From: Anadara kagoshimensis
Lineage: Eukaryota > Mollusca > Bivalvia > Arcoida > Arcidae
Length of the DNA stretch: 64,000 nucleotides
Assembly: GCA_021292105.1 (NCBI GenBank)
Contig: CM037869.1
Coordinates: 42,451,990 to 42,515,989, forward strand
Reading direction: 5' to 3'
Below are positions 11,642-37,474 of the stretch, in pieces. The notes below the pieces were generated by a model, which saw nothing but the letters and a program-made list of their open reading frames with translations, made no database searches and was not told where the DNA came from. Every line of letters begins with the position of its first letter. Within the stretch, counting starts at the first letter, position 1. The translations under genes were made by a program, and so were the position numbers.

Positions 11642-11910
11642 TTATTCTTTTGCTTTTATGTTCAACTCAATGTCTCTTCCGAAATTATATTTTGATGATT
11701 TTGAGCAAGGACATATATTCTCAATTCCTTTGAAATTTGGAAAGAATGGAATATATTTTGTCCAGTTCCATTTTCTAATGTATTTCATTCCAAACGGAAA
11801 ATCATATGTTCTTAAAGTTAGTTTTCCTGATTTCAATGTATCTTCATTTTCGTCTGCAGCCTCATCCTCAGACAGACGCCACGCCCTGATCCCTCTTTCC
11901 TCTAGCGTCC
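11642..11910 (-). CDS. SLC23-like: SLC23-like exon 14 (C-terminus and stop)
   Basis: 269 bp, entered in phase 1, stop TAA at 11644-11642. Starts GTLEERGIRAW, has an acidic insert, then YDFPFGMKYIRK and YIPFFPNF as in SVCT C-termini, followed by a 28-residue tail without recognised targeting signal. Confidence 0.95.
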
Positions 11911-14900
11911 CTATGTGATAACGAAGAAAACGATTAAAACATGGACGGATATATTTGTGTCTGATTCTAAATAAAACCATGTTTGATAAATCAGAGCAGT
12001 AAGAGTGGTTTTTATTTGATTAAGAAGAATAAGGAAGCCAATGGCGATTTTGGCGTGATTTTTACCGACCAAGGCTTCAAAATGGGTAGTGACTGTTTTT
12101 TCGCCAAGCACTTGGCATTAGGAAATGAATGTCACGGTTATTATGGATGGGAACTTAAAATTACCAAGGTCCTCTGTCACAATAAAGAACCCTGTTGTAT
12201 AATGGCTTCATTGCAACGCCGCTCAGGCAACATTTCTACAACTTCTCCTATATATAGCTATAGCTGACGGCGTCTCGAGATAAGTAAAATTTGCTTGACG
12301 GGAACGTTAAACACCATTACTGAACTGAACTCCAGTGGCTAAGCACAAAAATTAGTATCCAATAGCAATCTCTTGTTTAAATTGCACCAGCCGTTTGGAG
12401 AGACTAAAGTAATGAAGATTAGAACAGACTATCGGAAAGATGACCGAAGACCTTTACCAAATTGAAATTACTCAACAACTCTACTCACTACTAATATCAT
12501 TACCTGGCAATATGTTATCCAGAACTAACGAGACGAAACAGGCAATAAACATATTATTTGCTAGTAGTGCTGTTACCACCTGATTACCTATTGGGTCGCC
12601 TAAAAATAATTTTAAAAAACAACAAAAGTTTAATAAATATCATCAAAGCACTGAAGGTGCTGAAAGACGATTTAATTAGAAGCAATGAACTTAATAATAC
12701 AGTCAAACCTGTCTATAAAGGCCACCAAAGGGAACCAGCAAAAGTGGCCTTTATGGGCAGGTGGCCTTTATATACAGGTTTAAAAAATATGAATAAAGAA
12801 CAATTGGGATATAATTTTACTGTCCTTTATAAGCAGGTAGCCCTTATATAGAGGTGGCCTTAAAGCAGGTTGGACTGTATTTATTAAGAAAATGGCTATG
12901 GGGGTACTACGTGTGGTAATAAAAGAAACAACAAACCATTATTGAATACAATCCCAATTGAAAACTTTACAAACTGACAAATTAGATTAAACACGTGAAC
13001 GTCCACCAGGGAATTGTTCCGGAATTTCATTGAATCAAAAGAAGTCGCATATGAATCATTTCATTGCATTATACATAGAATTATATCAACTAAACACTGA
13101 TAAATTACGCTACTATATTATATACCTGTAGGAAATTTTAGGCGTGAATGGGCGCATTTTGATATTTGAACTTTGGAGCTATTGTGAACCAGATCACATT
13201 AGACTACCACGATGTGACCATGACCGACAGTGTGTAATATGCGTATGTCTGTTTTGTACAAGCGCACACTCATCTCACTTTGAGATGCTAGTTCATTACG
13301 ACAACAGTTACAGAGGTTGCTGCACCACCGGTCCATTATCCTGACACCGGTTAAGCAATGTGGAACGAAGTTTATTCTCACAATAACCATCGTTCGGGTT
13401 CGAACCCACAAGCCTTACATCTGGAGTCCGGCACTCTATGAGCTATATCCTACCATAAAATTCACTTATAAAACGCACAGGAAAAACATTATGCAAATAT
13501 AAGGTTGAATAATAATCTTAAAATTAATCAGAACATTGCCTTCCAACAGAAAAAAAAACAATAATTTTTTTTAGAAGCGCTTATCTTAAAACCGCGGTTG
13601 CCTAATGGCGTCGGTCTACCATATCAGGGTGTCTCACCGAGCCCCGCTCACACCACGTGTGGGAAAGTGAATTTTCCTTGCCGTTGAATCTTCACTGGTT
13701 TATCCGGTTTCAGTATTATGTGACTTTGGTAGTGACACGCTTGTCTATGGGGTACTGACTAAGTGAGTCAGTACCTGAGAGTCGCACGGAGTGCGCGCTG
13801 AAACAAGACAGACCATAAAACAAACTAGCGCTTCACAAGCATACACGAACGTGTTCATAGATTAATTTACAGAGATTAAAAAACTAGTTATCGTCGCAAA
13901 TAGCTGAAAATATTCTGATGTGACGTTAAACAACACCAAACGCTTATATAAAATATTAAAATAAATACTGATGAATGTAATTATGTCTGAAATAAATAAA
14001 GAAACTTGTTGTATAATGTCAACAGCGCGACGCACAGGCAAATTTCGCACCTTTGCCTAATGCTAAATAAAAAAAGCATGTTAATTGAAACCACTGAAAT
14101 TTTAAAACACATTCATATATAATTATCCCCGACTCTCAATGAAAGACAGGGGTTTTAAGTTAACATTCTTTATCGTGTCACGTGACCTCATTTATGCAAG
14201 TTACCATCTGAAAGAATACTTAATATTTACAATATGACTGTATCTCTCTTCGATGAAACATGCAAAAGCAATTGTATTGCAATTCCATAAAAGACAATTG
14301 GAGTCATGACCCTTGGTTTGTATCAATTTGACCGCAATATCACGACATGTCCCACACAGGGGGGTCACGTGGTCGTGTGAGATACACCGAACTCGCATGA
14401 CTAAAAACCCTATCTCACACGAGCAGATATTGAAGAAATAGCCCCAAGTTACAAACTAGTTATTAAAAGAAAGAATCGTAAATACAGGTACAAGCAATGA
14501 CATTCTGATCATGGTATTTCAAGGGGTAATTCAAGATAGTGTGGCGCGTGCCAAATTCCAATTGAAGGGCTTCGGCCTTCATCGAATGTGGCACGCGCCA
14601 CACTATCTTGCATGTACCTTTGAAATACTGTAAAACATAAAATTTTCGCGTGCATGTTATTTTCGCGTAATTCGCGAGTTCATAAAAAATCGCGAAAATT
14701 ATATGCGCGAAAATAAATTTGATCGAATAAATATGAATGGACTTATTTGGGTGTTTCAGCAAGGGGCTCACGATGGGATCGGGCTCACCAACGGGATATC
14801 GCGAAAATTTCATGCCGCGAAATGACTTTGATACAAATATCGCAAAAATATCATGCCGCCAAAATAAAATGTTTTACAGTACCATAATCCGAATGTAATT

Positions 14901-17900
14901 TCTTAAATACTGAGAACTTGGCGAAAGAACAAGAATAGTGTTTGTCAATTTTGTTTGCCTAGACATATAAAGCTTACCTGAGGTAAAAAGTGCTTCGTTG
15001 TTTTTAACCCAACCTGGAGCAGCTAACCCACAGAAAAGTCCCATACCAAATACTATCATATTCCTGGAAGAATTTAAATCCACATATTGAAGATTCGATG
15101 CACCAACTGCAGCCAAAACTCCTAAAATAAAATCAAAACCAAACATACAAATCTAGTTTCAAATCACTATCTAAATACAAAGTAAAATTTCTGAAACTAG
15201 CGAACATGTTAAATACCTGAAAATCCACCAGGTGTTCTGGAAGGGTAATCACCTACTGTTTAACTAGTACATCCGCCACCTTCGTTGTAAAAAGTTCCCA
15301 TAGTTGGAATAAGCCTACGATAGCTTTGAGGTGACAGAGATGGGGATAGCAAGTTCTTGGAAAGCTCCGGAAAATAGATAACATCTGCCGAAAAACTGTC
15401 ACTATATGGCTAATATGTTAGCTCACTGTTAAACATTCAATATATATTTTTGGAAATAAAAAAAAACATACAAGTACATACACCCTGTGGTCCATATATA
15501 TTTTTTTCCTTGTTTTTTATTTTGTTTTTTTACAAGAAGGGAATTTACAAGCTAAAGACATATGCATGTACTTAGAACATACCGAGGAAACAAAGAATTC
15601 GAGATAATACAAATTAATAATAACAAGAACTGTTTCGTGAGAGCCAAATACCCCCTTTATCTAACATCTACAAAAGTATTATGTTTTCCTGCGACCTTGA
15701 GCTTTCCGATATGACATTTGGGTTAAGGTCATACCCCACACACCTTTGGTTGGTTGGTAGGTTGAATGTTGCTTAACGTCGCATCAGCAATTTTTCAGCT
15801 ATTCGCGACGAGAACTATTTAATTAATCTCTTTGGATTAATCAATGAACAATTTTGTGTATGCATGTGAAGTGCGAGTGTGTTGTATGGTCTGCCTTGTA
15901 CTAGCGCGCACTCAGGGCGACTTTACCGTGCTAGCTCACAGAGTCAGTACGTCACAGACAAGCGTACCACTCCCCCAGTCCATTATACTGATACCAGGTG
16001 AATCAGTAAAGGCCAACGGTAAGGAAAATCCACACACCTTTGGACAATGAAGGTTATTCATGTAAAGTTTTATGACAGCGGTCCAAACCAATTGTTAGAT
16101 ATGATTTGGACACGAATTTACACAGATGGATGAACAGATAGACATGGTGATCCCTTTAATAAAACAGCCAAACACAAGTATACAAAGAAAAAGCAAATGC
16201 GTTTTTTGATAATAATTATTAAATCTGATTTAATTTGCAGAACTAGACGGCCCTCTCGAAATTAAATTTCTCATTAATATAATGCTCGAACCAAAATTGT
16301 GAAATTCCAAATACCTTTATTTCAAGATGTTGAATTGAGAATGTAAGAAGGACCAAAATTTTATTTTATAAAATACAGTCAAACCTGTCTATAAAGGCCA
16401 CCCAAGGGATCCAGTAAGAGTGGTTTGTATGGGCAGGTGGCCTTTATATACAAGTTCAAATAATATGAATAAAGAACAATTGGGATAAATTTATCTGGCC
16501 CTTATAAGCAACTGACCCCTTTATATAGGCGTGGCCTTTAAGGCAGGTTGGACTGTACATCTTATTTTTTACCAAACATATTTTTTATCAATGATTTTAA
16601 TACTCGTGACCTTGGACGGACACTTGAGGGATATAATGCTTACCAAATAAAACTATAAATGATGCGCCAATGATAGGATCGGGTATCGTGACAATAAAGG
16701 CACTCATTTTGCTGAAACACCCAAATATCATCATTATAACACCAGCCGTAAAAACAACACGTCTACTGCCAACCTAAAATAAATAAATACCGTTACCACG
16801 ACAACAGAAGAACTAATTTTATTGAAACACCCAAACAGCATCATTATAACACCAGCCGTAAAAACAACACGTCTACTGCCAACCTAAAATAAATTAATAC
16901 AATTAAAGTCCGATCATATTTTCAGTGATGAAAAAAAAGGTTTTGAATGGGTGGAGTGATTCAAACTTAGATATCTTACTTGATATAACTTCAATAGAAT
17001 TGAAATTGCGCATGTGTTATTAGAACATATTTTTTCATATTTTGGATATTTTTTGCAAATATTCTCAGCTTTTCATTTTTTCTGGCTTTTAATTTATATG
17101 AATAAATTTTAATAAACTTTATCGATAAAAGTTTGATGAGAAATTATTACTTGTTCGTGTGCAGTCTTGTTTAGAATATAGGTATTTAAAAAAGTATTTC
17201 TCTATCTTCATGGTTAAATTATTAATATCCGCTGTAGTTTTGGAGTTTTTGGGAGTCTAAATTTAGCAATTACTTGAAAGGAAGCTGTTGTCCCTCTCAT
17301 ATGTTGATATGGCATATTCGACAGTTTCATTCATATAAGTCATTCAGAACTTAGTTTTAATTGGCTAATACGTACTCACGCGATACGGCTTTATACGTGT
17401 ATTTTTTCCTAACCAGTATATGTCATGGACTAACCCATTGCACTTGTTTATGAATGGACACCAGGTAAAACAACACAAACATAAAAATAATGAATAATAT
17501 TTATTACACATGTTTGACCTTGAACGACATTTTTTAATTAATATTTTAAAACTGCAAAACCTTCAAGCTCATCTAACAAGCCGCGATTTTTATCTCAAAA
17601 GATGCAGTTATTGACGATTTACGTAATATGCATTGTCTGAGTTCAGATGTGCGTCTGATAAAAACGGAGTTTATTTGATTTTTAGACTTAATATAAGAAA
17701 TTTAATCAAATTTTTAAAATTTTTTATAAAAATTACAGAGCTTCATAAAGCATTTATGAAAGTTGAGGTAAGTACTCCACGATCTTTTTTTCATCACTAA
17801 TTAAGTGATCAGACTATGTATACTATGACTACAGAGGTACTCATTGTACTGAAACACCAAAATGACATAATTATAACACCTGCTGTAAGAACAACACGTC

Positions 17901-20900
17901 TACTGTCAATCTAAAATAAATAAATACCGTTACCATGACAACAGAGGTACTGATTTTACTGAAACATCCTGCCAACCTAAAATAAATAAATACAGTAACC
18001 ATTGCAACAACATTTTACTGAAACACCTAAATAACATCATAATGACATCAGCATTCTACTGCCATCCTAAAATAAATACATACCGTTACCATGACAAAAA
18101 AGGTACTCATTCTGCTGAAACAACCAAATAACACAATTATATCACAACGCCGTAAGAACAACAATTCTACTGCAAACCTAAAATAAAAGAATACAGTTAC
18201 CATGACAACAGAGGTACTTCTTTTTCTGAAACACCAAAACAACATCATTATAACACTAGCCGTAAAAACATCAAGTCTACTGCCAACCTGAAATAAATAA
18301 ATACATTTACCATGACAACAGAGACACTAGTTTCACTGAAACGCCCAAATAACATCATTAAGAACAACACTTCTACTGCCAACCTAAAATATAAAAAAAT
18401 GACAACAGAGGTACTCATTTTGCTGAAACACCCAAACAACACCATTATAACACCAGGTCCTAGTTTCACAATCATTTCTTAGCTAAGAATTTCCTTAACT
18501 TGATTTTAGCAAAATTTGGTAATCTTTTTTTAAACTACTGATGGATATTTTTGTCAAAAGTATATGCGAATGTTTTAATCTGGAAGTAATCTTAAAAATG
18601 ACACCTTAAATCTTCGAATATCTTGAAAATTAACAAAATTATAAAGATTTGAAATTTTTCAAGATTTGAGTTAAGTAAAATTTTAGCTAAGGAATGATTG
18701 TGAAACCGGGGCCAGCCGTAAGAACATCAAGTCTACTGCCAACCTAAAATAAATAAATAGTTACCATGATAACAGAGGCACTAGTTTCACTGAAACACCC
18801 AAACAACATCAAATCACAATCCCAAATATAAGTAAATAATTTGAAACTGGCTTCTAACAGGGAAATAGAATAAGGCCGGGTGCTCCGGAAGGGTAAACAC
18901 ATATTTAGCTGGCTATATTTGTCAGGTGTGAAAACTTTATTGGATAATATTCCATTTGTGTACGAGTCGTTATCTCATTTTGACCATACTTGAAAATGCA
19001 GTCCAACCTGCGTTAGAGGTCATCTCTATTTAAGGGCCACTTGCTTATAAAGGCCAGTAGAATTTTATCCCAATTGTTCTTTATTCATATTATTTAAACC
19101 TGTATATAAAGCCCACCTTCCCGTTAAGGACCCTATTACTGGTTACCTTGAGTGACCTTTATAGACAGGTTTGACTGTTAGTAATTGCTGTTCGTCAAGC
19201 ACTGGACATTTAGAAATGAAAATCACAAGGTCCTCTGGAAGAGACCTTCTGGAAAAACAGATGTTCCGTGTTCACAAAAAGCGTATCATGTTAAAGAAAC
19301 ATTTCTTGCAAATGTCAAATGTCTACCGGTTCAATCATAGTGGGAGACATCTCGATATAAGTGAAATAATCTTAAATAAGACGTAAAACTCCATTTATTT
19401 AATCAATCAATCAATTTGGTCATTGATTAGGTTCTTTTCAATCACAATTTTTATATGTAATCATACATACCTTTGTGAGACTAATAACGCCAATATTTTG
19501 ACTGCAAGATGTTACCCCGAACCCAGATCCAACAGCCACAGCCAGTATACAGTCGATACCTTCAATGAGTATGCCTATATTAACAAAAAATAGTAAACCT
19601 ATTATTAAAAAATAAATTATTACCCCCCCCCCCCTCCGCAAACGAAGTTTAGGGGGTATAAATGAACTATTCTGTCTGCACATTTGGTGGTTGTCCATCC
19701 CAATATTGTGTCCGCACTTTATCTTTTATGTCTATAGATGGATTTTGAAACTTGGCACAAACGTAAACCAACATGAGACGATGTGTTGCGTATCACATTT
19801 ATCTGTATATGTCAAAGGTTAAGGTCAGGAGGTCAATGTTTGGAGGAAGAGGTATTAGGCTCTCAAGAGACAGTTCTAGTTTTTTCTTTTTCTTTTTTTC
19901 ATATTAAATGCTAAAACCCCTCTGTAAGTGTAAAAGCCCGCGAAGCAAAATAATATCAGTTATTCCTTATAATTTAATTTAATTATACCTTTGCAATAAT
20001 ACAATGTATTTACAATTTCAATGACAAATGTTTTAAAAACTTTACAGTTAAATAAAAAACAAACATACTAATCCATGTCCGAATCACAATCCAGAAGCAA
20101 AAAAAAAAAAAAAAACAAAACTTTGAAACAGACACGTAAACATTCACCAGGGAAGTGAGAAAGATCTTGACTAGGGAGAGCATATTTAATCTAATCTTAA
20201 TCTTCGGGCTTTTAGTAAACAAACGTTGGCGATGGATTGAGGCTTTACTGTTACTTTTATATAAAAACAAAAGCTTTCAGTGAAAGCAAGATCCCCCGCC
20301 GATAGGTGTTTTTAAGATGAACGACAGGGCCACACTTGACATTTTTATCTTAAAATTAAGAATGTCAAGTGTTGGCTATTTTCTTCCCGTCCATCCAATG
20401 TGTGTATCAGTCTCTGTTTATGTCAAGTGTTGGCTATTTTCTTCCTGTCCATCCAATGTGTGTATCAGTCTCTATCTATCTATGAAGTGTGATCAAGTGA
20501 TACATAACTGGATTTTTAATGATGTTTATTATGGTATTAATATGCGCCAATATAGCACTTTGTTGTTGACTATCCATCGGTGTAATATGTACTATATATG
20601 TTAGAAGTTTGAACATTAACTGTCAGACGAAAATAAACTAAAAAGGGCCATAACTCCTAGAAAAGTTAATGGACCAGAACTGGTTTACAATATGCAAAAC
20701 TATACTTCACACTGACCATTGCTGTAAAGTTTCACATATATTGGATGGACAGTTTAGGAGAACTAGCGCGGACAAACTTTGTAACTGGCGAAAATAAACT
20801 ACAAAAGAACATAACTCCTGGAAAAAATCAATGAACAAGAACTGGTTCAAGATATGCACAACTACACTTCCCACTGATCATTACTGTAAAGTTTAATGAA

Positions 20901-23900
20901 TATCGGATGGATGGTTTAGGAGAACTAGCACGGACAAACTTTGTGACACGAAAGGGCCATAACTCCTGGAAAAATCAATGAACCGAAACTGGTTCAAGAT
21001 ATGCACAACTACACTTCCCACTGATCATTACTGTAAAGTTTAATGAATATCGGATGGATGGTTTAGGAGAACTAGTACGGACAACCTTTGTGACACAAAA
21101 GGGCTATAACTCCAGAAAAAAAATCAATGAACCGGAACTGGTTCAAGATATGCACAACTACACTTCCAACTGATCATTACTCTACAGTTTCATGAATATC
21201 GGATGGATGGTAAAAAATGATTCAAAGTGACTAAGAATGCAATACTATTCCTTCATGTATTGGAAAACGAAAAGAAATATGGACGATAAAATTATAAGCA
21301 ATCAGCAAGATTTCTTATCATTTCATATTAAACTCATACACGTCAACACAACATACTGGTAAGAGCCTAAATTACAATCCTAAAACTGGCAAATTGATTT
21401 CAACACCCGAACGTCCACTAGAGAAATGAGGCCGCGTGTTCTGGAAGGGTAAACACCTCCATCTAGCTACACCCGCCATGTGTGTAATTAAAATTGAGAA
21501 TGAAAGTAACGTGCAACAATAGGAGGTCAAATATATCCAGGAAAATTATGTATACGGAGATATCATACTTGTCAACAATATTGTGATGACGGCTATTTAA
21601 CTTTGGTAAGGTTCGGTTTTCAATGACCCCATGTCCCAACAGCTCTACCATAGCCCATTAGCATATAAATAATGCATTCAAAACAACTTATAACTAGAAA
21701 AACTGTGAGCCCCAAGCTCACAAAAAATACCCACCGCTCCCAAAAATACATCGGATAAAATTTTTAAATAGGAGGTGCACATCTACATTATATCACAAAG
21801 ATTGTGTGAAAGTTTCATGGAAATCCATAGAAGGGTTTAGGAGGAGTTGCGGATAAGAGATAGGTACCCTAAGAAGTAACGGAAGGACGTAAGGACGGAC
21901 ACACGGACGGACAACCCTATCAATATATACCCCCCCCCCCACTTTTTAAGCGGGGGGTGTAATAAAGGAAGGCAAATATAGTAATAATTCAAAATGCTGT
22001 TATTTTAGCGAATCAAGTGTTAATTCGCGAGAAGATGAAATTGCGTTTCAGTCATCGGTTATTGACTAGCAAAATTATTTAAAGATAGATACCTTCAATT
22101 CCAAGAAGATATGGAATTCGGGAATTAATTAGAACGCAAATTAACGCAAAAATTATGTTCATGCGAAGAAAACCCACTTACAGCAAACTAAAGCATTGTT
22201 TTATATTTTACTCAACTCACAGCATAATAAAATGTATAATTTCAAAATTGATTTCCATACCTCTATTTACTGCTGAGGATGGTGGCGGAAGTGCTCCAGC
22301 AATTCTTGCGCATGTGTAATAGTCTCCAATTGACTCTATCACCGATGTCACAACTCCAGCAATCATAGTAAGAAATATTGCAGAATTAAAAGTAGGTCTG
22401 CCATATTTTCCTAAAAACGAATAATAAAAGTGTAAAGCCATTAAAGTTCGATATTTAGTCGAGTTGTTACGATGGTGAACTAGACTATGAATTTGATGAT
22501 GCGACGAGCAGGCGGAAGGAATTAGTGTTGTGGACTTTTTTTCTAAACGCCAATAGATCGAGCATGAGTTCCGTTCAAGTCAACTGATTTTTGTCGAGTT
22601 ATTGGCCTTGGACTAACATAGTAAAATGATGGATTTTGCCGCCCGAACTTGTATTAAAAACCCTTGCAGGCATTAAACTACGATTTTGCATGTCAATCAA
22701 AAACAAACATACTAATCCATTTCCAAATCACAATCCAGAAGCAAAGTAAAAACTTTGGAACTGACAAGTTAGGTTAGACACGTGAACTTCCACCAGGGAA
22801 GTGAGGCCGGGTGCTCCGGAAGGATACACCCTACCATATAGAATGTGAAATTACAATTTGATTTGTGCCTCCTGCTTACAGGAATTTATCTTATTTTTAT
22901 ATTGGTGATTTATGACATTGACAAATCAATTGATGATTTATTATTTTGATCATTGACATAAGCAAAATGTAATTTTTGAAGAATGATGTAAGCGACACGT
23001 TGAACTCGCGTTTTATTGCGTTGGTAGGGAACCATGCATTGGTTGGAAGTATAGTGGATAAACAAGACTGTGATTACAGGGACACAAAGCAGAAAAGAAG
23101 AAAGTTCAGATTCATACAGTCAGAAAAATTATCCATTGATGCTGCAAATGAGCTGGTATTGAATTATTATCGATGATGACATACCTGGGTAAGAAAATGT
23201 CACCGTATGACTTACCTGGGTACGAAAATGTCGCCTAATGACTTACCTTGGTACGAAATGTCACCTAATGACTTACCTGGGTACTGAAATGTCCTCTAAT
23301 GACTTACCTGGGTACGGAAATGTCGCCTAATGACTTACCTTGGTACGAAAATGTCGCCTAATGACTTACCTGGGTACGGAAATGTCGCCTAATGACTTAC
23401 CTGGGTACGGAAATGTCGCCTAATGACTTACCAGGGTACGGAAATGTCGCCCATGGAGTTTGTTGTATGACGTGTGTCCGTATGTCCGTTCTTGCTTCAT
23501 ATCCATAGTTGCCTTTCCTTTCAGGGAATACGTCCGTGATAGTGAAAACGTAACATAGCAACCACACAAAACACACCGATATGATAACCTGTAAGTATTA
23601 AATAAAGCATGAGTTTGATTGACAGTAAAGGGCGGAGCATAAGTCATTACATGAGTTTGATTGAAGGTAAAGGGTTGAGCATAAGTCATTACATGAGTTT
23701 GAGTCAAGGTAGAGGGTTGGGCATAAGTCATTACATTGGTTGGAGTGACGGTAGAGGGTTGGGCATAAGTCATTACATTGGTTTGAGTCACGGTAGAGGG
23801 TTGGGCATTAATCATTACATGAGTTTAAGAGACGGAAGAGGGTTGAGCATAAGTCATTACATTGGTTTAAGTGACGGTAGAAGGTTGGGTATAAGGCATT

Positions 23901-26900
23901 ACATTGGTTTGAGTGACGTAGAGGGTTAAGCATAAGTCATCACATTGGATTAAGTGACGGTAGAGGGTTGGGCATAAGTCATTACATGACGGTAGAGGGT
24001 TGTGCATAAGTCATTACATTGGTTTGAGTGACGGACGAGGGTTGAGCATAAGTCATTACATTGGTTTAAGTGACGGTAGAAGGTTGGGTATAAGGCATTA
24101 CATTGGTTTGAGTGACGTAGAGGGTTAAGCATAAGTCATTACATTGGATTAAGTGACGGTAGAGGGTTGGGCATAAGTCATTACATGACGGTAGAGGGTT
24201 GTGCATAAGTCATTACATGAGTTCGAGTGACGGTTGATGGCAGATCATAAGTCATTACATGAGTTTGAGTAACGGTAGAGGGCGAAGCATAAGCCATTAC
24301 ATTGGTTTGAGTGACGGTAGAGGGTTGAGCATAAGTCATAACATGAGTTTTAGTGACGGTAGAGGGTTGGGCATAAGTTATTACATTGGTTTGAGTGACG
24401 GTAGAGGGTTGAGCATAAGTCATTACATTGGTTTGAGTGACGGTAGAGGGTTGGGTATAAGTCATTACATTGGTTTGAGTGACGGTAGAGGGTTGGGCAT
24501 AAGTCATTACATGAGTTTGAGTGACGGTAGAGGGTTGGGCATAAGTCATTACATTGGTTTGACTGACGGTAGTGGGTTGAGCATAAGTCATTACATTGGT
24601 TTGAGTGACGGTAGAGGGTTGGGTATAAGTCATTACATTGGTTTGAGTCACGGTAGAGGGTTGGGCATAAGTCATTACATTGGTTTGAGTGACGGTAGAG
24701 GGTTGGGTATAAGTCATTACATTGGTTTGAGTCACGGTAGAGGGTTGGGCATAAGTCATTACATTGGTTTGAGTCACGGTAGAGGGTTGGGCATAAGTCA
24801 TTACATTGGTTTGAGTCACGGTAGAGGGTTGGGCATAAGTCATTACATTGGTTTGAGTGGCGGCAGAGGGAGGAGCATAAGTCATTACATGAGTTTCAGT
24901 GACGGTAGAGGGTTGGGCATAAGTCATTACATGAGTTTGAGTGACGGTAGAGGGAGGAGCATAAATCATTACATGGGTTTGAGTGACGGAAGAGGGTTGA
25001 GCATAAGTCATTACATGGGTTTAAGTGACAGTAAAGGGTGGAGCATTAGTGATTACATGGTTTGAACGACGGTAAAAGGTGGCATTATATATCACATTGG
25101 GCATAAGTCATTACATTGGTTTGAGTGACGGTAGAGGGTTGGGTATAAGTCATTACATTGGTTTGAGTCACGGTAGAGGGAGGAGCATAAGTCATTACAT
25201 TGGTTTGACTGACGGTAGTGGGTTGAGCATAAGTCATTACATTGGTTTGAGTGACGGTAGAGGGTTGGGTATAAGTCATTACATTGGTTTGAGTCACGGT
25301 AGAGGGTTGGGCATAAGTCATTACATTGGTTTGAGTGACGGTAGAGGGTTGGGTATAAGTCATTACATTGGTTTGAGTCACGGTAGAGGGTTGGGCATAA
25401 GTCATTACATTGGTTTGAGTGACGGTAGAGGGTTGGGCATAAGTCATTACATTGGTTTGAGTCACGGTAGAGGGTTGGGCATAAGTCATTACATTGGTTT
25501 GAGTGGCGGCAGAGGGAGGAGCATAAGTCATTACATGAGTTTGAGTGACGGTAGAGGGTTGGGCATAAGTCATTACATGAGTTTGAGTGACGGTAGAGGG
25601 AGGAGCATAAATCATTACATGGGTTTGAGTGACGGAAGAGGGTTGAGCATAAGTCATTACATGGGTTTAAGTGACAGTAAAGGGTGGAGCATTAGTGATT
25701 ACATGGTTTGAACGACGGTAAAAGGTGGCATTATATATCACATTGGGCATAAGTCATTACATTGGTTTGAGTGACGGTAGAGGGTTGGGTATAAGTCATT
25801 ACATTGGTTTGAGTCACGGTAGATGGTTGGGCATAAGTCATTACATTGGTTTGAGTGACGGTAGAGGGTTGGGCATAAGTCATTACATTGGTTTGAGTCA
25901 CGGTAGAGGGTTGGGCATAAGTCATTACATGAGTTTGAGTCACGGTAGAGGGTTGAGCATAAGCCATTACATTGGTTTGAGTGGCGGCAGAGGGAGGAAC
26001 ATAAGTCATTACATGAGTTTGAGTGACGGTAGAGGGTTGGGCATAAGTCATTACATGAGTTTGAGTGACGGCAGAGGGAGGAACATAAGTCATTACATGA
26101 GTTTGAGTGACGGTAGAGGGTTGGGCATAAGTCATTACATGAGTTTGAGTGACGGTAGAGGGAGGAGCATAAATCATTACATTGGTTTGAGTGACGGAAG
26201 AGGGTTGAGCATAAGTCATTACATGAGTTTGAGTGACGGTAGAGGGTTGGGCATAAGTCATTACATGAGTTTGAGTGACGGAAGAGGGTTGAGCATAAGT
26301 CATTACATGGGTTTAAGTGACAGTAAAGGGTGGAGCATTAGTGATTACATGGTTTGAACGACGGTAAAAGGTGGCATTATATATCACATTGGTTTGAGCG
26401 ACGGTAGAGGGCGAGGTATTGGACATCACATGGGTTTGAGTGATGGTAGAGGGCGGAGCATAAGTCAATACATGTGTTTAAATGACAGGAGAGGGCGGAA
26501 CATAAGTTATTACATGGGTTTAAATGACGTTAGAGAGAGGGGAAGTAGTTATTACATGACATGCATTTGAGTGGCGGTAAAAGGCAGGTTATTAGACGGG
26601 CGAGGTTATGGCCCTATGAATTTGGGATCTGCCTAGACACAGTTATCCATAAACCTACTCTATAGACCACTTGGACGATGAAGTTCCTTCATAAGTGTAC
26701 GAGTTTGGAATCTGCGAGACGCAGTGATTCATTAACTTGCACTATTAGACTAGGCACATTTTCAGAAAAGACGTCGTTTTAAGGAGGAAGAGGCATTTTT
26801 TAGTAAAAGCAAACCATATATGATTCTTACCTAATTTGGGTGTGCTGAGTCCGAAAATGGCGGATACCAAGCTGAAAAATTGCTCTAAGTAGGTCAAAAT

Positions 26901-29900
26901 TTTAAATACAAAATGGCCGCCAATATCAAAATGCATTTTTGCATGAAAGTTGATATAGAAGTTGTTTTGGTAGCAACAAACAGCTATTAATCAAAGATTG
27001 TGATATTTCAAGGCTTACTTGGGTGTTAATAAACAGAAAATTTAAACAAAATACCTATGGACCTTATTGCTCACCTGAAAACATTTAAAGATACTGAAAT
27101 CTTAGGGGCAACAACACCTTCGTTTATTATCATACACAAAATTTGCTACGAAGTTAGATCTTGGCATGTTGATTATTTTTGCAACTTGGTGTTGTTATCT
27201 TTTTATAATACTCTTTGAAAATATATGGTCAAAAACACAAACTCGCAAAAAATTATACTCCAGGGGTAACAACTCCTCTATGGATCATCGTATTCTTACA
27301 AACATTGCTACTTAGCTTGGCATGTTCATTATTTTTTAATGTCTACTTTATATAACACCAATAGTTTTCTAGTAAATAGCCTCAAAACAAGCACAATTTG
27401 TGAAAAAATTAAGTATTTTTCAGGGGCAATAACTCTGTAAAAGGGGTTTAATATTTATGAAATCAAAAGATCTGGCATGCCGGTCAGCGTCTCAGGTGGC
27501 CTGGCGACAAAGGTCATTATGAAAAAATGTTTATATTTGACTCATGAAAGAAGTTCACATGTTTAATTTAAGCCAGTTTTAAAGGTTTTCGCTTTTATTT
27601 TTGTATTGTAATTTGAACATAGGACTGTATGTTTCCGTTTAATTCAATGAATCAAGTATGGCACATAACATGCTGAAACACTGATATATGTAGTCTAGGG
27701 TGTGAATGAAATAGCTTACAAAATTGAAGCCTGTGTTTGCACCAAATGCTTTAGAATTTTTCTTTTTTGCAGTCGAAGAGCAAAGTAAATGTAACTACAC
27801 TAGCCTTCCTAATCTATTTAGGGGTGCTAAGTCATCACCGAGCAACTCTAAGCTGACTATTTGCTAAAAAGGTGAACTTGCACTACAAAATGTTGATGTG
27901 AAGTTTGATATTCAACTATAGCAAAAGTAATACTACATTTTGTTTTATTAAAACTGGTAAGAAGTAAGAGGGCTGAAAGATATACCGTAAGCCTTCTGTT
28001 TAAGGAGATTAGCGCCGATGTCCCATTTCAACCTTCTATCCCCTAACTATTTAAATCCGTGTATCTGAAGACCAGTGTAATTTTGTAAGTTAATATCAAC
28101 AAGGTATTACTCTTAGTAGACTTGGCAAATGTAAAAAATGGTGAAAGAGCAGGATCCAATATTTGCACAAAAACGGTTAGGCACCTAAGGCTATCCATAC
28201 TGATACGATAGCAACACTAGGGAAATATGTCCCTTCATAAGCAAGAGTAAAAAGGTGGGTGGCGGATTATGAACAGGAACAGGACAAGCAGAACATTAAT
28301 GATGACCCCAGTCATAGAAGGTATGCCACTGTTGCAACCCAGAAATGGTCAATAGAGCTTTGTTTTCATTCCATTCATGGTAGTCGAAATCACCATTGGT
28401 TGCTCATTTTTGAGAAATCCTTTTCTTTCAAAAAGAAAAAAATGTTTTTGCAAATCTGTAAAAACAAAAATACTCTAAACATTTTCACAAATTTTGAAAG
28501 TCATTTAACAAATCATTTTAAAATTGTGGAAACGTAGATAAAAACCATTGTATTGTTATGACTGACGGGTGAGTTACAGAAAATATAAGGGCAGTGAGTT
28601 GGCATTTCACAGAGAAGAGTACATTCTATTCTGACATCCTGCAATAAGAAAGCTTTTGGGTCTGTTGGGCTTCTGGCAATTAATCAGAAGCACACACAAG
28701 ATGCACTTTGTCGCGTTTTAATCTAAACATTTTAGTGGTAGATTCTGCTAGCTCCCATAAGAGCTTTGTTTCTATGGAGGCAAAGTGGGACATTATTTCA
28801 TCCCTGAGCCCAAATAACAGTCTAAACAATGGAATCACCTGGCTCATCTCCGCCAAAAAAGGCAGAGAAAGACTGTTCCATCACCACAGTTAACTTAGAT
28901 ACTGATGGTATTCTGATGGTACATGTAGATTATTTCCAAAAGGGACAAAAAATAAATGGCACATAATTTGTATTACTTTTGAGGCTGTTTCGGAAAAATA
29001 TTCAACTCAAGTGTTGTGGAAAACTCAGTAAAGGTGTCTTGGTCCACTGACACAATTCTACCATTGCTTGACTGCAATTAACGATTGTGGCTTTAAATTT
29101 TAAATTGAGTGGCCAACTTTTTGCTTAAGCTTGCACATCAGTCTTGCTATTTACAATACCCAGTTTTATATTTAGACGATGATGTTATATATTCATTGGA
29201 GGACTTTCTGAATTTTCAAGAATATGAATTATTTAAAAGTTGCATTGAGCTCCTTAAACATCGCTAGCAAAACTGTATAGAGACCAATACTATGTTGTAA
29301 AATAATGCAATATTACCGTCGAAATTCAAACCACTACATATGAGGTTCACAACTTATCAATCGATATATGTTTTTAAGTAATGGTTGTGATTCTACCTAT
29401 TAAAGCAATATCATTCTTAAAAGTTTGACGCATGATGACACGCACGATAATTTGGTATTTTGACATTGACAACCACGGGTTCTACATACTATTTTGCTAG
29501 AACATGTGGCAAACTCTGTATAAAAGAGTGTTCTTGAATATGCTCTTTTTGCATTTCAAACACAAGTTTCGATTTTGACTGTTAATTCCACACCATGAGC
29601 AGTATTTCAGTATGATTTTGGTTATGAACTCAATTTATTAGTCATGTAGATTTATCAGTGCACTATGCAAAAGGCACACATAATGAACAAACACTTAACT
29701 ATAGCCACCTTTTTTTTTTAGAAATTGTTTTAAATTTGGTTTAAACATTTATACTTCAGTTTAGCCTTTTTCATTTTAATGTTACAACCCCAAGTCTGCA
29801 AATTATGCTGAAATGTTACAAAGTACCATCTTTTGCTAAAACATGCAACTTAAATATAAACAGTCGCCATTTTGTTTCGGAATTATGGGTTCAAAAGCTC

Positions 29901-32900
29901 AAAATTTTACTTGGTATCCTTCATTTTTTAACTCGAAGTATGTCAAATTAAGCATGCTTCTAACTTTTACTAAAGTTTGAAACCCCAAGTAACATTTTTG
30001 CGATGGTACACTATAAGTCGCCATTTTGATTTTGGAATTATGGGTTCAAAAACTCAATATTGAGCTTGGTATCTGCCATTTGTGAATTCGGGATCCTTCA
30101 ATTGTGTTAAATAAATCATGTTACCAACTTTTACTAAAATTTGAAACCCCAACTGACATTTTTGCATTTGGTACACCATTAATTTTAGCCGCCATTTTTA
30201 ATTATGGATTAAAAAATTCAAAACTGATCTTGGTATTCACCATTTTTGGAATCGGCATCGTCGAATTGTGTTAAATAAATCATGTTACAAACTTTTACCA
30301 AAATTTCTCAACCCAAGTAACATTTTTTGCATTGTAACCATTAATTTAGCCGCCATTTTGTTTTTGGAATTATGGGTTCAAAAACTCAAAATTGAGCTTG
30401 GTATCCGCCATTTTTGAATTCAGCACCCTCGAATTATGCTAAATAAATCATGTTACCAACTTTTACTAAAATTTGTCAACCCAAGTTACATTTTTTTGCA
30501 TTGGTACACCATTAATTTTAGCCGCCATTTTGTTTTTGGAATTATGGGTTCAAAAACTCAAAATTTAGCTTGGTATCCTCTATTTTTGAATTCGGCATCC
30601 TCGAATTATGTTAAATAAATCATTTTACCATTTTTTACCACAATTTGTCAACCCAAGTAACATTTTTTGCATTGGTACACCATTATTTTTAGCCGCCATT
30701 TTGTTTTTGGAATTATGGGTTCAAAAACTCAAAATTCAGCTTGGTATCCGTCATTTTTGAAATCAAACTCTCCAATTATGTTAAATAAATCATGTTACCA
30801 ACTTTTACTAAAATTTGCCACCCCAAGTAACATTTTTGCAGTGATACACTATAAATTTAAGTCGCCATTTTGTTTTTGGAATTATGGGTTCAAAAACTCA
30901 AAATTCAGTTTGGTATCCGCCATTTTTGAATTCAGCACCCTCAAATTATGTTAGAAAAGTATGTTACCAACTTTTACTAAAAAATGCCGCTTCAAGTCAC
31001 ATTTTCTGAATTTGTTCCTAGTCTATATAGACTACTCAGCCTCTAAAGCCCCTTTTTATGATCGTATGAATTTGGGATCTGATCCAGACACAGTTATACA
31101 CATAAACTGCGCTATAGACAACTCGGCCCCTAAAACCTTTTTATGATCTATGAGTTTGGATCTGGCCCAGACTCAGTTAAACATAAACCTGTGTTATAGA
31201 TAATTCGGTCTCTGAAGCCTTTTTATGATCGTATGAGTTTGGGATCTGACCCAGACACAGTTATACATAAACCTGTGTTATAGACAATTCGGTCTCTGGA
31301 GACGTTTTATGATCGTATGAGTTTTGGATTAGTCCAGATGCATTCATACATAAACCTGAGCTATAGACTACCCGGGTCCTGAAAAAATATTATGATCGTA
31401 AGAGTTTGGGATCAGGTCCAGACACAGTTATACATAAACATGCGCTATAAACAACCCGGTCTCTGAAGCCTTTTTTACGATCGTATGAGTTTGGGATCAG
31501 GCCGAAACGCAGTTATCCATAAGCCTGTCTTATGGACAACGCGGCCTCTGAAGCCCCTTCATGATCGTGCGAGTTTTGGATCTGGCCGAATCGCAGTAGT
31601 CAATAAGCAAGCGCTATAGACAATTCGGTCGCTGAACCCCTCTAAGATAGTATGGGTTTATGAATCTGGCCCAGACGCAAATAATCCATAAATCTGCGAC
31701 ATAGTCTTCTCGGACTCTGATAAGCCCTTCATGACTTTGGGTTTGGGATCTGTCTAAGACGCAGTGATTCATAGGCCTGTGTTATAGACAACTCGGCCGC
31801 TAAAGCCCCTTACGGATTTTGTTTACTTACAGAAAACATTTTGTGGAAAACTACTTTGATCCGTTCTTCGGACTGTTCCGTCTTTTCCTTTGAACGTATA
31901 CATGGATTTTTCACATACACAGGCGGGATGACCTCACTGAGAATCATGATGAGGCATATTGTGCTGAAAGTAAAATACACAGTATGACATATATGTATAG
32001 GCAAACAACATTGACCTGTCCGCTTGACCTTTGATTTAAATAATAATTTTGGACGAGTGCATTTATGAATAGGGATCACGCGTGCTTATTTCGTCTACGT
32101 AATGCGAACATTAATCATGTTCCTCGGCTATACATGACTGTGAATCCTAACACTACCCATGCATTTGGTGGACCCTTCTATATGAATATTCCTCATGAAA
32201 GGTCAAGAGGGCGTGTCAATGTTGTTTATCTATACGTATCAATTACATTATGTACATATTATACCAGTTTTAATTTTACAGCACTAGACGGCCGTTTCGG
32301 AATACAATGCCTCATTAGAAGGGCTTTAACCAACATTAGGAAAACAAAACTTTGTTACAAGATGTTAAAAAGAAACCCGAATTACCAAAATATATTTTAC
32401 CAAATTTAGCTAAGGAAATACTAGAATTTTGCATGTGGCTGTATATCTTAGTTTTTTGGGGAATTTCAAATTTTAACTAGCAGCAAATTTATTCAATAGT
32501 ATATTTAAAAAAAAAAACACATACCAATCCTTGTCCGAATCACATGAACAATCCTAAAGCAAAGTGAAATCTTAATAAAACTGAAATAATTAATAAGTTA
32601 AAAACATGAACTTTCAACAGGAAAGTGAGACCGGATGCTCCGGAATGGTACACATCTCCTATTACGCTGTCTACTTCCGACACGGTTACAACTGAAATGG
32701 TAGTTGTTGTTGAATGTTGCTTAACATCGCACAAGCAACTTTTCAGCTATTCGCGACGAGAACTACTTTATTTATCTCTATGGCCCGGGTTAATCTATGA
32801 ACAAGTTCGCGGATGCATGTGAAGTGAGAGTGTGTTTTATGGTCCGCTTTGTATCAGCGCGCACACAGGACGACTTTAAGGTGCTAGCTTACCAAGTCAG

Positions 32901-35900
32901 TACGCCACAGACAGGCGTATCACTCCCCCAGACACATTGTGCTGACAACGTATCAACCAGTAAAGGCCAACAACAAGGAAAATTCACTTTCCCACAAGTC
33001 GTCTGAGCGGGACTCGAACCCACAGCAGTGAGAGAGTCTAGATTTTAAAATTAACACTTTATCCATTACAATCGGAATTAATGGCGTATGATTGGGATGT
33101 CAAATAAATCCGTGGTAATTTTGAGTATAGAAACATCATAAATAATGACAATATTTGTAACAACGGCAATAAAACTTTTAGATTTAGCGGGCTTGATAAG
33201 TAAAGGCTTGCAATATTCCTGCGTCAACAATTCATTTGTAAGCAGATTGCTTCGTTGTATAAATTTTCCGCAGTAAGAGCGAGCTCTACCATAGATTTAT
33301 AGTTGTGAAACATAATACACCATTAGCAGGAGAAGCAGATATATTGCCGCTGTTTTTCTTGTTAACAAAACATAACAAAAGTGGAAACTAGGCAAGCAAC
33401 ATCGATCTGTCATCTTGACCTTTTATTAGGAATATCCATAAATTGTTGTTCACCCAATACAGGTCATGGGTAATTTTAGGATTCGCGGCACAACATACAC
33501 AATGAAAGTGTTTCCACATTATGTACACAAAATAAATCTTCGCCAGTAAGGAAATATATCACAACGCAAGTACATATTGCAGAAACACTTTATCCAACAA
33601 GAGGCCCATGGGCCTGATACGCTCACCTGATAACTAATGACTAGCTGATAGATTTAAAGGAAACATAGATACTGAACCCCCAATGACTTTTATTTTTTTA
33701 CATCATAATGACCATTGTATCAATACCTACAACATTCTAATATGCATGCCTATACAAAAAGTTAATAGTTTTCGAGATAATTAAACATTTCAGTATTGTT
33801 TCACATCTGTGACCTTGACCTTTGAACCCATGACCTTTTTCTATACATCAAAATGATTGTTGTATCAATACCTACAATATTCTAATATACATGCCTATAC
33901 AAAAAGTTTATGGCTTTCCAAATAATAATTATAATCAGAGGTAAAAAAATTTAGGTCACGAACTTCACAATTCACCTTGACCTCATTTTGAAGATACTAA
34001 CAAGAAGATGTCAAAACTGAAAACTCCATGTCATTATCTGGTCAAATAGTCAAGTTATAACAATTTGAAGCTGTTTTACGATTTTTTTTTCAAAATTAAA
34101 CGCAAAAACGCGTAACCTATTTTTTGTCCGAATTTCAAAATGAACAAACTATAGGCTTAAGACCCTAGAGAAGCCAAATATCACATCAGATTTTTTCTCC
34201 AATCAATACTTTCGGAGAAGAAGATTTTTTAAGATTTTTGCACCCCTAGGTCACCTTGACCTAGTTATAGTAGCCATGGCAACGCCACGAACAAATCTGA
34301 ATTGCACCGGCCCATATATACTTCTGACCAAGTTTCATTGAAATCTATCCAGTAGTTTTAGAGGATAAGTCGAAAATAGGTGTTAACGACGCACGCACGC
34401 ATGCACGCACACACACACGCACGCACATACACACGCTGCGCTATGCCATAAGCTCACATGACCTTTCGGTCAGGTGAGCTAATGAACGAGTCAATGCACA
34501 TAACGCACACACACACAGATACGCCACATCCGCAAGGAAGATAAAACACAAGGTCCTAGGTGGAGTTGATACAACATAATCTACAATATATATTGGCGCT
34601 TTTTACAATTTCATCTTAAGTTGATTTTAGGCTTGACAAATATAAAAATCCAAACATTGCAGGATATAAGTTTCATACAATACATTACCCAAATGAAATC
34701 CCCCAGTGTTTGCCAGCCATCTCAAACCCAGTATCAATAACACCAAGACCCATCATCATTATCGTAGGGGCCACAGTCAAAGGTCCGATAAATCGTAGAA
34801 GAATACTGATACACCCGCTGGCCCCGACAAATATCTCCAGTCCTGCCGCAGCCATTAATGTACCACTAACCTAGGAATATAACATACATGTTAATTAATA
34901 TTGTGTTTGGGCAAAAATACATTATCGCTCCTTTCGAAGTTGCGAAGGAGCGAAGATATGATGGCGAAGGGGCGCAGGTACGATGGCGAAGGAGTGACGA
35001 TACGATGCCGAAGCAGCCAAGATACAGTTCCGAAGCAGTGAAGGTTCTATTGCTCGTTCACAATCGCGACTTCTCTTCTTCGCAACTTCGCGTTCAGATT
35101 GAAGGAGTGATGACACGATTCAGAGCGATAATATGAATTTGGTCCTAACAAGAACCCTCTTTTTTTTTTTGTGTTGATGGCGGTATATGGCGGCGGATAC
35201 AATTCTTACTTAAATTTCAGTGATTGAATGCTTGAATGGGGTTTTATTTTTCAGTCAAGAATATTTCACTTATATCGAGACGTCGCCAGTTATATGTAAA
35301 GCGACATTCGGATCTTTGCCATGCGCTCAGGACAGTATGGATGGAGTGTTCTCTAACATGCCACACTTATATTGTGACGCACATCGGTTTCTAAAGTCTC
35401 TACAAAAACTCTGCTATCAGCCATAAGCCATTCACGATCTAATGGCAGAGTAGAATTTATATAACGTATAGGTAAACAACATTGATGCGTCCACTTGGCC
35501 TTTTATTTCATTAGGAATATTCATATAGAAGGATCCACCCAATACATGGGCAGTGTTAGAACTCGTAGTTGATTATAATATTACACACGACACTTCGTTA
35601 GTGTTTTGTCATGAGGACTGTGATTCCTATGTATAGTGCGTCAAGTTTGACCTGACCGTTTGACCTTTAATTTGAGTATTAGATTAGGCTAATAAACTGA
35701 CAGTTTAGGTGAGACAGCGTGTTGCTTTACAACTAATACCAGGTACCCAGTATTACTATCATCTTTCATTATATATCAACTATACAGCCCCTTTTTTACA
35801 CAATGGATATGCGTGTTTGAATATAAAAATTAAAGGTCAAACGGCCAGGTCAAACTTGACACAATATACATAAATGCACATGTCAATCATAAATATTCAA

Positions 35901-37306
35901 ATTAAAGGTCAAGCGGACAGGTCAAAGTTGTTTGCCTTTAAAGAGGTATTACTAGGTTTCGTCGTATGTGGGTAATCACGCCGGCTTACGCTTTTTTCGT
36001 TACATCTACCCTAATAATGAAATGGACTCGCTGTAAACTTCGCCATCAGATCGTGAATGACCTATTCATTACATTGGATTATACTGTGGAAATAACCGGA
36101 TTAGCAATATGGAAAAAGGAACATGTGCCCACTACCGTTAATTCCCGGAAATACAGTTCTGTAGATTATAATTTTATAAGGTAAGTTACCTTACATTATT
36201 TCATATGTCTACCTCTGACCTGTCCGCTTGACCTTTTATTTAAATATTTATCACGGACCAAATACATCTATGTATTGGGAACACAGGTATTTTTTTGTAA
36301 ACACCGTGAGATATATAGGTAAACAACTTTGACCTGTCCGCTTGACCTTTCATTTAAATATTTATCAGGGACCAAGTATATCTATGTATAGGGAGCACAG
36401 GTGTTTATTTTGTATACATCATGAGATATACTCACCTCATAGAGTACACCTGTGCTTTGCGTATGTATTAACTTGGATCTTAACGCTACCCATATATTGG
36501 TTGGACCCTCCTATATGAATATTCCTAATGAAAGGCCAAACGGACAGGTCAATGTTGTTTACCTATACTCACCTCATAGAGTACACCTGTACACTGTGTA
36601 TATATTAACTTGGATCTTAACACTACCCATGTATTGGGTGGACCCTCCTAAATGAATATTCCTAATAAAAGGTCAAACGGACAGGTCAATGTTATTTTCC
36701 TATAAGCGTATAGGTCGTCCGTGATCTGATGACAAAGTATACAGCGAGTCTATTTTAATATAAGGGTGATTGTAACTAATAAAGCGTGCGTCGGCGTGAT
36801 TATACATGAACAGCGATACGCTACTTATATAGGTACACAATATTGACCTGTCCGTTTGACCTTACATTAGGCATATAGGAGGGTCCACATAATATATGGG
36901 TAGTGTCTGAATTATCAGTTAATACATATTCACGTTGCCTATGATTAGTGTTCACATCATATAGACGAAATATAAATGTGTGATCCCTATTAATTCAATT
37001 TACTCGTCCATAATGAATATTTAAATCAAATGTCAAGCCGACAGGTCAATGTTGTTTGCCTATAGATACATATGTATTATTGAAACCTGTCAGTGTTTTT
37101 AAACACTCTGCCATCAGATCGTGGGCGGACTACAACACTTATCTGTTGGCTTGACTTTTTATTTTATTATATGATGTATGCAGATCCATTATACAGTTGT
37201 ATTTTCCAAGTTTATTTTATATTACCATATTCAACCGTGTCTGCCAAATGGGTTGATCTTCGGTGATATTGATGTTGGTCTCATTTCCAAATGTTACATT
37301 GTTTGC

Positions 37307-37354
<48 letters not shown>

Positions 37355-37443
37355 ACAGTGGTTTATAGCTAAAATAAATACATGTTTATTGTCATAAATA
37401 AATGGATAGATAGATAGCTAGCTATAGATAAATACCACTGCAA

Positions 37444-37474
<31 letters not shown>

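What the first reader, a model, noticed from the sequence alone, without database searches (positions are those of the whole stretch)
23170..23445. Tandem array of 5' splice sites made from the end of a transporter exon
The 31-bp unit is the last 20 bp of SLC23-like exon 8 plus 11 bp of its intron, repeated about nine times directly downstream of the real boundary. The authentic donor reads CTG|GTAAGT, while most downstream copies read CAG|GTAAGT, a full U1 match. Splicing must therefore prefer the first, weaker site over a row of stronger decoys, or the array shifts some transcripts into frameshifted or truncated forms: one unit adds 31 nt and two units meet TAA. Unit number could tune transporter output.
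Basis: partly seen in the sequence, partly recalled or inferred. Interest (0 to 1): 0.88.

Follow-up and report, generated by a model that had tools for sequence, protein, structure and literature searches.

The report
Repeated splice donors after an exon
The end of one exon of a vitamin-C-type transporter gene, with its splice signal, is copied nine times in a row, and the same animal genome carries similar rows of repeated splice signals after exons of other genes, so cells must somehow pick the first of many equal cut points.

Summary
On the minus strand a 31-bp unit (20 bp of exon end + 11 bp of intron) occurs nine times at 23176-23451 in a SLC23 gene. The real donor is CTG|GTAAGT; eight decoys follow (5 CAG|GTAAGT, 2 AAG|GTAAGT, 1 CAG|GTATGT). 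Only the first donor keeps the frame; all eight decoys give a premature stop. Two corrections. The real donor is not weak for this gene (second of ten scored). And it is not a SLC23 peculiarity: I examined 32 places with donor arrays in the same genome, and in 19 (15 non-duplicate families) an open frame ends at the first donor, among them TRRAP, NOA1, CYRI-B, acyl-peptide hydrolase and a carboxylesterase, with up to about 118 units (80 perfect donors). In the five genes tested, the first-donor junction aligns without a gap to a solved protein. The SLC23 gene also has eight decoy 3' splice sites before another exon. Best reading: minisatellites born across exon-intron junctions, tolerated because the first donor is used. 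A dosage-tuning role is untested; tests for enrichment and decoy conservation were weak or not significant. No RNA data were available.

The parts
23176..23451 (-). 31-bp x 8.9 array of exon end + 5' splice site
23432..23588 (-). SLC23 exon E7 (seventh of 13 placed), 157 nt, ending ...TACCCTG
   Evidence: frame
23426..23434 (-). real donor CTG|GTAAGT
   Evidence: the only one of nine donors giving an intact frame from E5 to the stop codon
23210..23403 (-). seven decoy donors (CAG or AAG|GTAAGT) at 23400, 23369, 23338, 23307, 23276, 23246, 23215
   Evidence: each gives a premature stop
23179..23187 (-). last decoy donor CAG|GTATGT
22261..22410 (-). next exon E8 (acceptor TTTTTAG|GAAAATATGG)
23613..26535 (.). 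42-bp minisatellite in the upstream intron, ending 24 bp before exon E7
16702..18811 (-). second boundary array: units of about 110 bp carrying the 3' splice site and about the first 80 nt of exon E10; eight decoy acceptors (18743, 18383, 18287, 18177, 18066, 17976, 17910, 16883) before the real one at 16773
   Evidence: TRF 16702-16900 and 18053-18360; blastn copies
16644..16773 (-). exon E10 (VGSRRVVFTAG...), real acceptor TTTATTTTAG|GTTGGC
11642..41972 (-). SLC23/SVCT-like gene, exons E1-E13 placed (E4 and E6 by reading the sequence); E5-E13 join into one 454-aa frame; joins of E1-E4 not checked by script

Best explanation
A minisatellite arose across an exon-intron junction by tandem duplication (slippage or unequal exchange) and spread into the intron. 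The exon keeps the first copy; the others are intronic decoy donors. The spliceosome takes the first donor, the one that closes the exon nearest its own 3' splice site, so the coding sequence is spared and the array is tolerated; any decoy use gives a premature stop and probably decay. It is one of about 15 families of donor arrays that begin at an exon end in this genome. Shown: the anatomy, the frames, the recurrence, and gap-free protein alignment across the first donor in the five genes tested. Inferred: which donor is used, the decay, the way the array arose, and near-neutrality.
For: Array and frames. First-donor junction aligns without a gap to a solved protein in 5 of 5 genes tested: SLC23, TRRAP (E 6e-51), NOA1 (2e-26), acyl-peptide hydrolase (4e-14), CYRI-B (4e-18). 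Genome-wide: 32 places examined, 19 with an open frame ending at the first donor. In 19 of 19 the exon frame meets a stop within 126 nt of the first donor, in 12 of 19 before the second donor. Arrays of a reversed control motif occur at a similar rate per motif (26 places per 13,923 motifs against at least 12 per 10,032; ratio 1.56, P 0.25; by family 20 against at least 8, P 0.18), as general minisatellite birth predicts. Duplicate copies of one locus differ in unit number: 20.1/18.1, 12.0/18.9, 4.4/5.4. 0 of 14 SLC23 paralogues fetched have an array at this junction.
Against: No transcript was seen, so first-donor use rests on homology. Donor columns vary less than the rest of the unit in exon-end arrays (238/4151 against 1083/12295; lower in 14 of 19) but not in the other arrays (255/2414 against 786/7774; lower in 8 of 13); the six intron letters GTAAGT vary least of all (116/2448, against 784/9494 in exon-derived and 276/2732 in other intron-derived columns, 15 families). 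This hints at constraint on decoys. The rotation test gave z -2.31 for the 15 exon-end families (11 of 15 below the middle, sign P 0.12) and z -0.62 for the 11 others, difference P 0.32. Places were found by asking for three perfect donors, which biases such tests.
Confidence: 0.66

Rival explanations
1. Splicing rheostat: a share of transcripts uses decoy donors, is destroyed by nonsense-mediated decay, and unit number sets output.
For: Seven of eight decoys score above the real donor in SLC23; all eight give premature stops, 602-839 nt before the last junction; unit number varies between duplicate loci elsewhere.
Against: No sign that decoys are used; genes such as TRRAP and NOA1 carry the arrays; a weaker first donor is not the general pattern (15 of 18 others are CAG or AAG|GTAAGT).
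Confidence: 0.13
2. U1 platform: the row of U1 sites downstream of the real donor recruits U1 and strengthens definition of the exon, or protects the intron from early polyadenylation, and is kept for that.
For: Lower variation of donor columns in exon-end arrays. [quoted passage not shown]
Against: The difference between exon-end and other arrays is not significant (P 0.32); no significant excess of donor arrays over control arrays (P 0.25); 14 of 14 paralogues fetched do without.
Confidence: 0.1
3. Self-correcting array: every decoy unit ends in AG before its GT, so a segment kept by using a decoy donor can be removed later as a mini-intron from the first donor to the decoy's AG, restoring the exact junction (re-splicing or stepwise removal).
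For: In SLC23 all 8 retained segments (31-247 nt) begin GT and end AG, and the real copy alone has TG instead of AG. Tandem AGGT duplications that became introns are described in PMC4974935 (passages).
Against: The acceptor context looks poor by eye (short pyrimidine stretch, another AG in each unit; no score was computed), and segments of one or two units are shorter than usual introns. No RNA evidence.
Confidence: 0.06
4. Assembly artefact.
For: None seen; raw reads were not available.
Against: Units differ from each other in SLC23, and the arrangement recurs in unrelated genes on different contigs.
Confidence: 0.04

Closest known systems
Internal tandem repeats at exon-intron boundaries in human duplicated genes (PMC2812944)
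   Same: Tandem repeats at exon-intron boundaries, variable in number, that can give alternative splicing through novel introns (passages seen).
   Different: Described there for human genes in segmental duplications; here long rows of perfect donors directly after exons, also in conserved single genes, in an unnamed animal genome.
Intron gain by tandem duplication of AGGT-bearing segments (Rogers model; PMC4974935)
   Same: Units contain AG|GT, so segments between copies are GT...AG; multiple 24-bp AGGT copies with introns across them are cited there for fission yeasts (passages).
   Different: Here the unit spans an existing donor and the copies lie in an existing intron; no new intron is shown.
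Closely spaced tandem donors (GYNGYN / GYNNGY; PMC1779574, PMC4267661)
   Same: Competing donors at one exon end (title and start of abstract in search listings only).
   Different: Those donors lie a few nt apart; here the unit length is 19-46 nt in the exon-end arrays, with up to about 118 units.
Recursive splicing (zero-length exons; recalled)
   Same: CAG|GTAAGT can be read as an acceptor followed by a donor.
   Different: Copies lie next to the exon, in tandem, and the acceptor context looks poor by eye.

Membership tests
SLC23 (nucleobase:cation/ascorbate transporters) | Xan_ur_permease domain and SVCT similarity | tested here: met
   454-aa frame E5-E13
Tandem repeat at an exon-intron boundary | unit spans exon end and intron start | tested here: met
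Tandem repeat at an exon-intron boundary | unit number varies | tested here: inconclusive
   no second copy of this SLC23 array was found to compare; duplicate loci of other arrays differ
Tandem repeat at an exon-intron boundary | alters transcripts | not testable with these tools
   no RNA data
AGGT tandem-duplication intron gain | each copy carries AG|GT | tested here: inconclusive
   8 of 9 copies; the real copy has TG|GT
AGGT tandem-duplication intron gain | a new intron between copies is spliced | not testable with these tools
   no RNA data
Recursive splice sites | good 3' splice site directly before a donor | not tested
   CAG is present; context judged by eye only, no acceptor score was computed for these copies
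GYNNGY-type tandem donors | donors a few nt apart | tested here: not met
   30-31-nt spacing

The most novel reading that the evidence does not exclude
Rows of perfect donors after exons are a kept feature of this genome: the decoy donors are held intact as U1 landing sites (or as re-splicing points) that secure use of the first donor, and they show that a strict 'first donor wins' rule operates in vivo over as many as about eighty equal sites.
Probability: 0.17. Interest if true: 0.85.

Novelty: new variant of a known kind. Interest (0 to 1): 0.66.

Why it matters
How a spliceosome chooses among equal 5' splice sites is usually studied in constructs with two or three sites (recalled). Here nature offers introns with tens of identical donors in conserved genes, where only the first gives a protein. 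Transcript reads across these exons would measure the choice directly, and duplicate loci with different unit numbers give built-in comparisons of dose.

Tried and rejected
Is the real donor unusually weak? Are SLC23 decoy donors conserved? 1 of 16 changes falls in the 8 donor columns (P 0.055), 1 of 12 by distinct changes (P 0.14); not convincing. One search gave a stronger value because the 30-nt unit was misaligned; it is discarded. One search showed a false stop for the real donor because I had set one exon start wrong by a base; one search corrects it. Are arrays concentrated at donors? Ratio 1.56 by places (P 0.25), 1.80 by families (P 0.18); one search had used 9 control families where a recount gives 8. 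The list was cut short of its 128 matches, so control numbers are lower bounds; the 13,923 donor motifs include the copies inside arrays. Is the array shared by SLC23 paralogues? 0 of 14 fetched, of 36 other exon matches in the genome. Thirteen of 32 places showed no clear exon before the first donor (L034, L039-L041, L052-L058, L060, L063) and stay unassigned. The census is a lower bound: one search listed 100 of 520 matches; one search listed part of 122 and showed two AAG places on contig C4 that I did not fetch; CAGGTAAGTT arrays beyond the listed part were not sought. Literature: ten searches listed no description of long donor arrays; the Zhuo 2007 paper is not held; passages of PMC12783039 describe repeats in a first intron and say nothing of repeated donors.

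Full report
What is there. The minus strand of the window carries a SLC23/SVCT-like transporter gene. I placed 13 exons from 41972 down to 11642, most by tblastn with a recalled human SVCT1 sequence, E4 and E6 by reading the sequence. Exons E5-E13 join into one 454-residue frame; the joins of E1-E4 were not checked by script. Joined exons match solved SVCT1 at E 8.7e-72 and PF00860 at 7.9e-57. At the 3' end of E7 the last 20 nt of the exon and the first 11 nt of the intron are repeated, nine copies in all, at 23176-23451. The real donor is CTG|GTAAGT; downstream stand five CAG|GTAAGT, two AAG|GTAAGT and one CAG|GTATGT.

Frames. Only donor 0 gives an intact product. Donor 1 adds 31 nt and stops in the next exon; donors 2-8 run into TAA. 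All eight stops lie 602-839 nt before the last junction, where nonsense-mediated decay would be expected (general knowledge). The change CAG to CTG at the real junction is synonymous (CCA/CCT, proline). Among 14 paralogous exons fetched, eight have CCAG before the GT at this place and none has an array in the stretch seen, so CAG may be the older state; this is not proved.

Strength. With a rough donor matrix (recalled frequencies) the real donor scores 6.63, second among ten donors scored in this gene; the decoys score 8.63 (CAG), 8.46 (AAG) and 5.80 (last). Pairing energy with the U1 5' end is -9.1 kcal/mol for the real site, -12.1 (CAG) and -10.6 (AAG) for the strong decoys, -8.3 for the last.

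A second boundary array. In front of E10 of the same gene, units of about 110 bp made of the 3' splice site and about the first 80 nt of the exon are repeated, giving eight decoy acceptors before the real one at 16773. Each decoy, if used and read through to the real donor, meets a stop in frame (8 of 8). Two inserts interrupt this array (read by eye).

A genome-wide class. The window's genome (1.115 Gb, 36 contigs, unnamed) can be searched. The array sequence found one other place: not a SLC23 copy but an independent 33-bp array after an exon of a TRRAP-like gene. Pattern searches for three donors at short spacing then gave 520 matches for MAGGTAAGT, 100 listed, 67 for CAGGTAAGTC and 70 for CAGGTAAGTR. 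I fetched every place in those three lists and the TRRAP place, 31 in all (L033-L063). With the window that makes 32 places, or 26 after dropping six duplicate mates. In 19 of 32 (15 of 26 families) I judge that an open frame ends at the first donor: SLC23, NOA1 (L033), L035, L036, L037/L038, TRRAP (L042), CYRI-B (L043), L044, acyl-peptide hydrolase (L045), an arylsulfatase-like exon (L046; name recalled, not searched because too short), a fibronectin-III-like exon (L047), a carboxylesterase (L048/L059), L049/L050, a furin-like cysteine-rich exon (L051) and L061/L062.

How firm the exons are. Pfam scores pass the curated cut-off for SLC23, NOA1, TRRAP, CYRI-B and the carboxylesterase, and fall just short of it for L047 (fn3, 24.8 of 25) and L051 (Furin-like, 26.5 of 26.8). 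L035, L037, L044, L045 and L049 gave no convincing Pfam match; L036, L046 and L061 were not scanned. For five genes the peptide across the first-donor junction aligns without a gap to a solved protein: SLC23, TRRAP, NOA1, acyl-peptide hydrolase, CYRI-B; no other junction was tested. The rest stand on an open frame that ends at the donor. In L035 and L047 only 3 nt and 1 nt before the first donor belong to the unit, so these are rows of donors that begin at the exon end rather than copies of it. The longest arrays have 118 units with 80 perfect donors in the locus (L046), 69 units (L033) and 54 units (L045).

What it does. In 19 of 19 exon-end arrays the exon frame meets a stop within 126 nt of the first donor, in 12 of 19 before the second donor. 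If decoys were often used, these genes would lose much of their output; that conserved genes carry the arrays argues that the first donor is mostly used. This is inference. The contrary rule, that of equal donors the one nearest the next exon is preferred, is recalled from older work; I read only passages on regulated donor choice (PMC5585400).

Tests of function. Donor columns vary less than the rest in exon-end arrays (5.7% against 8.8%), not in the other 13 arrays (10.6% against 10.1%). In 15 families the letters GTAAGT vary least (4.7%, against 8.3% in exon-derived and 10.1% in other intron-derived columns). Tested by family the signal is weak: mean rotation percentile 0.33 (z -2.31) against 0.45 (z -0.62), difference P 0.32. 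Donor arrays are not significantly more frequent per motif than arrays of the reversed motif: 26 against at least 12 places for 13,923 against 10,032 motifs, P 0.25; 20 against at least 8 families, P 0.18. So the data fit minisatellite birth at junctions plus tolerance, and leave room for a role as a U1 platform.

Instability. Duplicate copies of the same locus differ in unit number: 20.1 and 18.1 (L037/L038), 12.0 and 18.9 (L055/L056), 4.4 and 5.4 (L061/L062), 22.4 and 45.5 (L053/L054), while L049/L050 have 12.9 and 12.7; L048/L059 could not be compared because the unit fit of L059 began well after its exon. Whether these pairs are true duplications or separated haplotypes was not settled.

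Novelty. Tandem repeats at exon-intron boundaries that change splicing are known in human genes (PMC2812944, passages), and AGGT tandem duplications are a known route to new introns (PMC4974935, passages). Ten literature searches listed no account of long rows of perfect donors after exons across one genome (call numbers under Tried and rejected); only openly licensed papers were searched. I file it as a new variant of a known kind.

Noticed in passing
16702-18811: Array of eight decoy 3' splice sites with exon starts before exon E10 of the same gene, interrupted by an insert of roughly 240 bp with inverted ends (about 18700-18450) and one of roughly 1 kb (about 17880-16905).
   Followed up: partly
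39743-39806: A 72%-identical partial copy of exon E1 (64 bp) lies between E1 and E2; the tblastn match there has a gap.
   Followed up: no
45795-48353: Another 31-bp minisatellite, about 82 copies, 88% matches, with a different unit sequence from the donor array.
   Followed up: no
23613-26535: A 42-bp minisatellite of about 2.9 kb ends 24 bp before exon E7, so the exon is squeezed between two arrays.
   Followed up: no
G000: 37 matches to exon E7 of this gene in the genome, itself included: the SLC23 family looks expanded.
   Followed up: partly
L072-L074: In three SLC23 paralogues a GAT-rich microsatellite starts directly after the same donor (GTAAGTGATGATGAT).
   Followed up: no
L034, L039-L041, L052-L058, L060, L063: Arrays of perfect donors without a clear coding exon in front; some may follow non-coding exons.
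   Followed up: no
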